Source: Mycobacteroides chelonae
GTDB lineage: Bacteria; Actinomycetota; Actinomycetes; Mycobacteriales; Mycobacteriaceae
Length of the DNA: 64,000 bases
Direction of reading: 5' to 3'
Assembly (NCBI RefSeq): GCF_016767715.1
Contig: NZ_CP050145.1
Span: 4,216,001 to 4,280,000, forward strand
Shown here: positions 10,698 through 13,600 of the stretch, in pieces
Position numbering within the stretch: the first letter of the stretch is position 1
Layout: each line of letters begins with the position of its first letter
Notes under the pieces: generated by a model
Databases searched by the model: none
The model's input: the letters and a program-made list of their open reading frames with translations, nothing else
Told to the model about the DNA's origin: nothing
Made by a program: the position numbers and the translations under genes

Positions 10698-13600
10698 CGT
10701 CGGTCGATCGGCAAGGTCGCAGACCGCGGCACGCTCGGCGGCGCAGAGCCGCTGAATCTCTTCCGGGAGTCAGATCGTCCCCACGAAGGTCGAGGTATCG
10801 CCATGCGATGACCGGATCGGCAAGAATCACCTGTACCGGATCTCCGTACTGAGTGCAGAACCGGGCCGCCAGGTTGGGGTGACGGCGCACCACTGAGTGC
10901 ACCGCGTCGCGGAGCCTGAGCTGATCGACCAGACCGGTCACCGTGATGTCGAGCTGCACCGCATAGAAGTCGACTCCAGCTGCCTCGTCCTCCAGTACGC
11001 CGGCCGCACGGGCGAAGGTGGTGTGGAAGAGCAGACCCTGCTGTATCGGTGTCAGCGGGAGCACGTCAACGATGTTGTGCTGTTCGTGCAGCTCATCGAT
11101 CTGCAGTTGGCTCAACTGTGCGGGCGCGATATCGGACGGGGTCAATCCGCCGCCGCCGTTGCGGACATACGCGCAGATTCCGGCGAGTGCCTCGAACCAC
11201 AGCTGACTCAGCCGCTGCACCTGGGGCTCAGTGACCGACGAGGGCGCCCACGTCCACCCGGCCCGCAGATGCGCGCCGGATTCGTCACCAAGTCCACCCT
11301 CCACGATTCCGGCATTGAGATCCACCGTGTACATCAGCGGCATCGACACCGAAGACGCCACGCTGGTCGAGGTCAAGCTGTCCTCGTTGATCCGCCACAG
11401 GTCGTCCCCGAGATCGGCTGCCCCGGCACCGAGGCGCCCGAGATAGTTGAACCCGATGACCGGCTCCGGCGCGGCCAGATCCACATCGCGGTTCAGGTAG
11501 CGCAGCAGCCCATAGGTCAACGGATCGGGAAGTGCGCGCAGTTGCTCCTTGGCGCCCTTGATGATTGGCCCCAATTCGGCAGCTCCACCGGCAACTTCCT
11601 GCCAGGACAGACCCCGTACGCTCAACGCCACCGGGTACTTGGTGGTGAACCAGCCGACGGTACGCGACAGATCGACATCGTCAGCCAGCTCTTCGTGACG
11701 CCCATGACCCTCGACGCCGATGCCGACCGAATCCACATTCGAATCCAGGAATTCGTTCCACGCCAGCCCGAAAGCGATCAGCAGGATGTCTTGCACGCCA
11801 GCGTGAAACGCCGCCGGGACCTCACTGAGCAACTCGCGGGTGGTCTCGGCGTCGAGCGATACCGACAACGTCTTGGCAGTGGCGTAGGTGTCCAGCTCGG
11901 GCAGCACGGCAGGTAATGGCGCGGGAACCGCGGTCACCTCTCGCCAGGTGTCGGCCGTTGCGAGCACGTCGTCCGAATGTGCGTGCGCGTCGAGCAGCGA
12001 CGCCCAGCGGGCGAACGAGGTCCCTCCGGTCGGCAACTCTACCGGTTGCCCGCCATGGTGCTGCGCCCAGGCGATGTTCAAGTCTTCCAAAAGAATTCGC
12101 CACGACACACCGTCAACGGCCAGGTGGTGAATCATCAGGGCCAGCTGCCGGGTCTCGGGGATCCAGACCGCACTCAGCTCAGCGCCCGCGGCCGGATTCA
12201 GCTGCGCGCGGGCCGCCACCAACTCTGCATCGGACAAGGTCTCGGCGACACGCAGGCAATCACGCGCGTTCACCGCCCCCTTCTCCGGGACGGTCAGCGA
12301 CCACACGTCGGCATCGGGAGCATCGCTGTCCTCGGCACGCAACCGCAGGGTGGCATGCCGGTCCAGCAGCGCCTGCAGCACGACGACGACGTCGTCCTCG
12401 GTCACCCCGGCGGGAGCCTGCAGCACGATCGTCTGATTGAACTGGTCGGTGGGACCTTGTACGCCGTGCAACCAGTGCATGATCGGCGTAGCCGACACCG
12501 GGCCGATGCCCTCGTCGACGACTCCGGACTGGCCGTCCGAGAGCACGGCCACCGCCGCTACCCCACTGACGGTCTGTTCGACGAAGATGTCGCGTGGCCG
12601 GCACACCACCCCGGCCGCCCGCGCCCGCGACACCACCTGCATCGACAGGATGCTGTCGCCACCGAGATCGAAGAACGACTCGTCGACGCCCACGCGATCG
12701 ACTCCGAGAACCTGGGCGTAGATATCGGCCAGGATCTTCTCGACAGGTCCGGTCGGTGCGCGGTAATCCGTACCGACACTGCGATATTCGGGTGCGGGAA
12801 GAGCACGCTTGTCCAGCTTGCCGTTCACTGTCAGGGGCAGCGTCTCCAGCACCACCACTGCGGCCGGAACCATGTACGCCGGGAGCCTTTCGGCCAGTGC
12901 GGTGCGCGCCTCCACCGGGTCGGCGCTCCCCATGATGTAGCCGACAAGGCGCTTGTCGCCGGGACGGTCCTCGCGGGCGATCACCACCGCCTGCTCGACT
13001 CCATCCAGGCGGGCCAGTGCCGCCTGGATCTCACCCAGCTCGATGCGATACCCGCGGATCTTCACCTGCTCATCGGCGCGGCCCAGGTACTGCAGCTGGC
13101 CGTCCTCACCCCACTGCACCAAATCTCCGGTGCGATACATCCGCGAGCCCGGCCCACCGAACGGGCAGGCGAGGAACCGCGATGCGGTCAGTCCCGAGCG
13201 ATGCGCATAACCGGGCGCGACGCCGTTGCCTGCGACGTAAAGTTCGCCGACCACGCCCTCGGGCGCGGGCCGCAGCCACTTGTCCAGCACGAACAGCGCC
13301 GCCCCGGGCACCGGCGAACCGATCGGTGCCACATCCGAACCCGGCCTCAGCGGTCCACTCATCGCCGCGTAAATCGTGGCCTCGGTCGGGCCATAGGCGT
13401 TGATCATCGTTCGTCCGCTGGTGGCCCATCGATCCACCAGTTCGGTCGGGCAGGCTTCACCGGCGACGATGAGCGTCGTCGACTCCAACCGCTCAGGCGA
13501 CAACATCCCTGCGGCCGAAGGTGTCTGGCACAGGACGCTGACCTTCTCGCTGATCAACAGCTCGTGCAGCTCATCCGGTGAGGACGCGATCGATTCCGGG

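What the first reader, a model, noticed from the sequence alone, without database searches (positions are those of the whole stretch)
10752..10775. mps2 carries a one-base frameshift that should abolish GPL synthesis
Read on the minus strand, the 5' frame is correct through RGDDLTP and then becomes arginine-rich nonsense. The expected continuation EEIQRLCAAERAAVC, which matches the same segment of both internal C domains of Mps1, is found only in the +1 frame. Dropping one C of TTCCGGG (10763 or 10764) joins the frames exactly. The cut removes the C4 catalytic HHVVIDG, module 4 and the releasing reductase. In the M. abscessus group, small indels in mps1, mps2 and mmpL4b are the known cause of the irreversible smooth-to-rough switch, which is linked to greater virulence. 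All other GPL genes here look intact, which fits a recent single event.
Basis: partly seen in the sequence, partly recalled or inferred. Interest (0 to 1): 0.85.

Follow-up and report, generated by a model that had tools for sequence, protein, structure and literature searches.

The report
Broken surface-lipid gene in a mycobacterium
The sequenced strain of a Mycobacterium chelonae-like species carries a small deletion that splits the gene for a giant enzyme of its surface glycopeptidolipids, which should make its colonies rough; this is a well-known kind of mutation, seen here as another allele in a less studied species.

Summary
The frame break in mps2 is real. On the minus strand the frame is correct from 14355 to 10765, then runs through 85 foreign residues to a stop at 10507-10509; the rest of mps2 (10763-6630) is open in another frame. 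The 96 other loci examined keep frame across this point; only the window's own does not. The window has only 4 indels against its sister genome, which argues against an artefact, though no reads were seen. A near-identical database protein is intact across the site and the cut-off half shows normal constraint, so the break looks strain-level and recent. The organism is M. chelonae-like, not M. abscessus. Loss of most of C4, module 4 and the releasing reductase should stop glycopeptidolipid synthesis and give rough colonies, as mps1/mps2 frameshifts do in M. abscessus. That phenotype is inferred, not shown. It is a further allele of a known kind of event; interest is low.

The parts
10765..14355 (-). 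mps2, part read in the right frame (residues 1-1197): AMP-binding, carrier and epimerization-type condensation domains of module 3, plus the first part of C4
   Evidence: Pfam and NCBIfam matches; 14 differences in 1196 residues to the sister's intact Mps2
10752..10775 (-). site of the frame break; net two bases shorter than relatives
10507..10764 (-). foreign tail of 85 residues and stop codon read after the break
   Evidence: the tail has no meaningful match in Mps1 (best E 1.7)
6627..10763 (-). rest of mps2, open in another frame: remainder of C4, AMP-binding, carrier, thioester reductase
   Evidence: Pfam PF00668, PF00501, PF00550, PF07993, TIGR01746; dN/dS 0.061 against the sister
10620..10640 (-). 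C4 catalytic motif HHVVIDG, in the cut-off part
14352..24728 (-). mps1, whole (3458 aa)
   Evidence: one gap-free alignment of 10374 bases to the sister
24755..25081 (-). small gene upstream of mps1, mbtH by size and position (name recalled)
   Evidence: 100% identical to the sister over its whole length; not family-tested
5657..6460 (-). gap-like gene (SfLAP family), whole
   Evidence: PF11139
39400..42333 (-). MmpL gene, whole (mmpL4b by position)
   Evidence: PF03176
42343..45240 (-). MmpL gene, whole (mmpL4a by position)
   Evidence: PF03176

Best explanation
The sequenced strain carries a recent, strain-level loss-of-function allele of mps2, the second GPL peptide synthetase gene, made by a net two-base deletion. 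Translation ends 85 residues after the break. The truncated Mps2 keeps module 3 and a fragment of C4 without its catalytic motif, and lacks module 4 and the releasing reductase. The peptide would stall on module 3, no lipopeptide core would be released, the cell should lack GPL and grow as rough colonies. Shown: the break, its size, its absence from the relatives examined, the lack of a second copy, and whole neighbours. Supported but not proven: recent and strain-level. Inferred: the biochemical stall, the loss of GPL and the rough morphotype.
For: Two frames; 96 of 96 other loci in frame; net -2; 4 indels against the sister in the whole window and 4 of 315 genes frame-broken in 400 kb; intact near-identical protein P0008; dN/dS 0.058 before and 0.061 after the break, 0.069 for mps1; no second copy (next best match in the own genome 70%); the same kind of mutation is the common cause of rough M. 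abscessus (PMC8092298; PMC10243398, passages).
Against: No reads were available and the sequencing method is unknown. No phenotype is known. Besides mps2, 3 of 315 genes are frame-broken in this genome in the survey, so a low rate of errors or of real polymorphism exists. PMC12455991 (passages) notes rough isolates without such mutations, so morphotype is not set by these genes alone. GPL genes outside the window were not examined.
Confidence: 0.88

Rival explanations
1. Sequencing or assembly error: the real strain has an intact mps2.
For: Reads not seen; 3 of 315 other genes are also frame-broken in the own genome; P0008, nearly identical, is intact.
Against: Only 4 indels against the sister across the window, the other three outside the genes found whole; the change is two bases and not a change in a long homopolymer; the gene hit is one where real mutations are common.
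Confidence: 0.07
2. The break is fixed in the species: an established pseudogene of a GPL-negative lineage.
For: Only one whole genome of this species could be searched.
Against: P0008 differs from the window at 3 of 1196 residues (the sister at 14) and is intact across the site; no relaxed constraint downstream.
Confidence: 0.03
3. The gene still works: the ribosome changes frame at the break, or the two halves are made separately and assemble.
For: The downstream frame stays open for 1380 codons and keeps low dN/dS, but a recent break explains that too.
Against: 0 of 96 other loci have a frame change here; the 12 possible restart codons listed between 10697 and 10301 have at most 3 of 6 matches to AGGAGG upstream; a restart at 10697 begins at position 119 of the 456-position condensation profile.
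Confidence: 0.02

Closest known systems
Smooth-to-rough switch of Mycobacterium abscessus by small indels in mps1, mps2, mmpL4b (PMC8092298, PMC10243398, PMC5996870)
   Same: Same gene, same kind of small frame-breaking indel, same expected loss of the GPL peptide core.
   Different: Another species of the complex; position and allele not compared with published lists; no smooth parent and no phenotype at hand.
mps2 single-nucleotide deletion in M. massiliense patient isolates 2B-7 to 2B-11 (PMC10243398)
   Same: mps2 split into two ORFs.
   Different: There the break is nearer the start (267 and 2327 residues in the paper's table) and loss of GPL is stated (data not shown); here it is after residue 1197.
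Deletion of the GPL locus in M. massiliense Type II (PMC3878547, abstract in search listing only)
   Same: Rough colony through loss of GPL genes.
   Different: There the GPL locus is deleted; here one gene carries a small indel.

Membership tests
Mps2 GPL peptide synthetase gene | A-T-E-C-A-T-reductase order downstream of mps1 in the GPL locus | tested here: met
   Domains on the two pieces taken apart, next to mps1, gap-like and MmpL genes
Mps2 GPL peptide synthetase gene | One continuous reading frame | tested here: not met
   Two frames; this is the finding
Rough-type loss-of-function allele of a GPL gene | Inactivating small indel in mps1, mps2 or mmpL4b | tested here: met
   Net two-base loss, 54% of the sister's length cut off
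Rough-type loss-of-function allele of a GPL gene | No GPL, rough colonies | not testable with these tools
   Needs the strain
Rough-type loss-of-function allele of a GPL gene | Absent from intact copies of the same species | tested here: inconclusive
   One near-identical partial protein, P0008, is intact; its source is not shown
Programmed frameshift gene | Frame change conserved among relatives | tested here: not met
   0 of 96 other loci show a frame change at the site

The most novel reading that the evidence does not exclude
The strain makes GPL despite the break, because the ribosome changes frame there or because the two halves assemble into a working split condensation domain.
Probability: 0.02. 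Interest if true: 0.6.

Novelty: new member of a known kind. Interest (0 to 1): 0.2.

Why it matters
It is an ordinary but well-supported case of a broken GPL gene outside M. abscessus. The genome is held as the assembly for its species in the collection searched, so anyone using it as a reference for surface lipids, colony form or phage susceptibility should know that its mps2 is broken while a near-identical copy in the databases is not.

Tried and rejected
Assembly noise: rejected as the main reading after the 400 kb survey and the indel census, but not excluded without reads. Programmed frameshift: no conservation. Internal restart: no good ribosome-binding site among the 12 codons listed. 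Second copy: of 9 matches in the own genome to a 601-base query, the best other is 70% identical. Old pseudogene: normal constraint downstream.

Led nowhere: naming the species. G091 has 5,029,817 bases, which I recall as M. chelonae CCUG 47445; no call confirms it. M. stephanolepidis NJB0901 (PMC5604778, whole text) has 4,994,485 bases and 93.56% ANI to M. chelonae CCUG 47445, and so is not this genome of 5,061,177 bases. Searches with gwanakae and MOTT36W gave listings that I did not follow. The region search with the sister's protein scored a capped set and lists no same-species full-length Mps2 among its 120 rows; I take it as uninformative. Rfam and a near search of plasmids gave no match. 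In one search my coordinates for six of nine sequences began past the site, so only G091 and G050 show it there; one search covers the rest. PMC10101123 (one passage) and PMC12455991 (passages) were seen for background.

Full report
Setting. The window lies at 4,216,001-4,280,000 of a single-contig genome of 5,061,177 bases. On the minus strand it holds the GPL locus: two MmpL genes (39400-45240), sugar, methyl and acyl transfer genes, a small mbtH-like gene (24755-25081; named by size and position), mps1 (14352-24728), mps2 (6627-14355) and a gap-like gene (5657-6460) (several gene names rest on position and recall).

The break. Stop-to-stop, mps2 is split into 14454-10510 and 10769-6630, whereas 11 of 11 relatives' loci looked at in the same script (L009-L019) have one open frame of 2555-2642 codons. 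L087 (G091) and L088 (G050) are open over their whole held stretch of 1567 and 1566 codons. In the window the first ORF has 1282 codons: 1197 in the right frame, then 85 foreign residues with 18 Arg. The other frame carries on the condensation domain; its first 140 residues match the two internal C domains of Mps1 at 68% and 59% identity, and HHVVIDG is at 10620-10640.

Size of the change. The two flanks were placed separately on 97 loci (L009-L105). In the 96 other loci the flanks lie in one frame, with an extrapolated spacing of 6 bases in 76, 9 in 6, 3 in 5, -3 in 4, 0 in 3, and 18 and 21 in one each; the own locus L086 has 4. These 96 are not independent Mps2 genes: some come from the same genome, and some are Mps1 or other paralogs. 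G091 and G050, aligned directly, show the window two bases shorter, and the genome alignment calls -2 at 10764.

Artefact or not. Within the window the alignment to G091 has only 4 indels, at 10764, 37682, 39379 and 63428; the last three lie outside the genes found whole. Over 370 kb aligned, one- and two-base differences number 100 (29, 13, 43 and 15), yet of 315 G091 genes with an ortholog 4 are frame-broken in the own genome, and in the other direction 5 of 319. Mps2 is in both lists; some of the other rows are near gene starts and may be start-site differences. The gene calls are from a simple script, and the survey covers 400 kb of 5,061 kb. Reads were not available.

Recent and strain-level. 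Against G091, dN/dS is 0.058 before the break (1196 codons), 0.061 after it (1378) and 0.069 for mps1 (3458). dS differs (0.092 before, 0.155 after, 0.150 for mps1); I did not look into why. Database protein P0008 (1405 aa, one contig of 7385 bases, no source shown) differs from the window at 3 of 1196 residues before the break and 1 of 207 after it, and is continuous across the site; G091 differs at 14 of the 1196 and 0 of the 207. The tool shows '-' as source for proteins that the window encodes; P0008 is not letter-identical to the window, so I read it as another strain, but its origin is not shown.

Organism. Over 17 blocks (376,624 bases) identity to G091 is 95.5%. The closest named loci by Mps2 are Mycobacterium sp. 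D16Q14, D16R12 and D16Q13 (92-93%), Mycobacteroides sp. LB1 (87%) and M. chelonae S00154 (86%) (records near the window's genome may be left out there). M. abscessus proteins are about 90% identical, the sister 98-99%. That G091 is M. chelonae CCUG 47445 rests on my recall of its length. I call the organism M. chelonae-like.

Mechanism. The truncated product keeps an AMP-binding domain, a carrier domain, an epimerization-type condensation domain and a fragment of C4; 54% of the sister's length is cut off. By what is established for non-ribosomal peptide synthetases, the chain would stall. No second copy was seen. The stall, the loss of GPL and the rough colony are inferred.

What is known. In M. 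abscessus, over 75% of the rough strains without a smooth counterpart have mutations in mps1 and mps2, most commonly 1- to 2-bp indels (PMC8092298, section 7). An mps2 frameshift giving two ORFs went with the rough change in one patient (PMC10243398, passages). The review PMC5996870 (passages) names mps1, mps2, mmpL4a, mmpL4b and mmpS4. M. chelonae is said to switch too (PMC1885439, passages). In the M. chelonae-abscessus complex, five named isolates were rough and 22 of 30 smooth in PMC6433289 (passages), and the M. salmoniphilum type strain gave both forms, the rough one being sequenced (PMC6418233, passages). Not every rough isolate has such mutations (PMC12455991, passages), and one reversion is reported (PMC8092298, passage). 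My searches for mps1/mps2 breaks in M. chelonae (listings of 25 of 133 and 12 of 38 papers) showed no title about one; I did not read those papers for it, so I make no claim that it is unreported. In the protein search, of 17 close hits that I picked from the 120 listed, 8 start at residue 1 and stop matching at eight different points between residues 1310 and 2150 of the sister's 2576; I did not check which are cut by contig ends.

Verdict. A very probably real, recent, strain-level loss-of-function allele of mps2 in a M. chelonae-like genome; a new member of a known kind; phenotype inferred.

Noticed in passing
window 3480-5650: A MFS transporter gene and an AraC/DJ-1-type regulator gene sit beside the GPL locus here and are missing at this place in sister genome G091; G050 holds the stretch at 82% identity a few kb from its mps2, which suggests loss in G091.
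   Followed up: partly
database proteins P0010 and P0016: Two Mps2 relatives of the M. abscessus group seem to have large internal deletions that join the region after module 3 to a later part of the protein.
   Followed up: no
own genome 4,197,353-4,198,759 (A->B row 89): A 468-residue gene is whole here but frame-broken in sister genome G091.
   Followed up: no
window 10768-14355 against 6630-10763: dS to the sister is lower before the break (0.092) than after it (0.155) or in mps1 (0.150), perhaps from recombination; it says nothing about the break itself.
   Followed up: no
own genome 4.82-4.85 Mb and 3.04 Mb: Further condensation-domain matches at 68-70% identity, so other peptide synthetase genes exist in this genome.
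   Followed up: no
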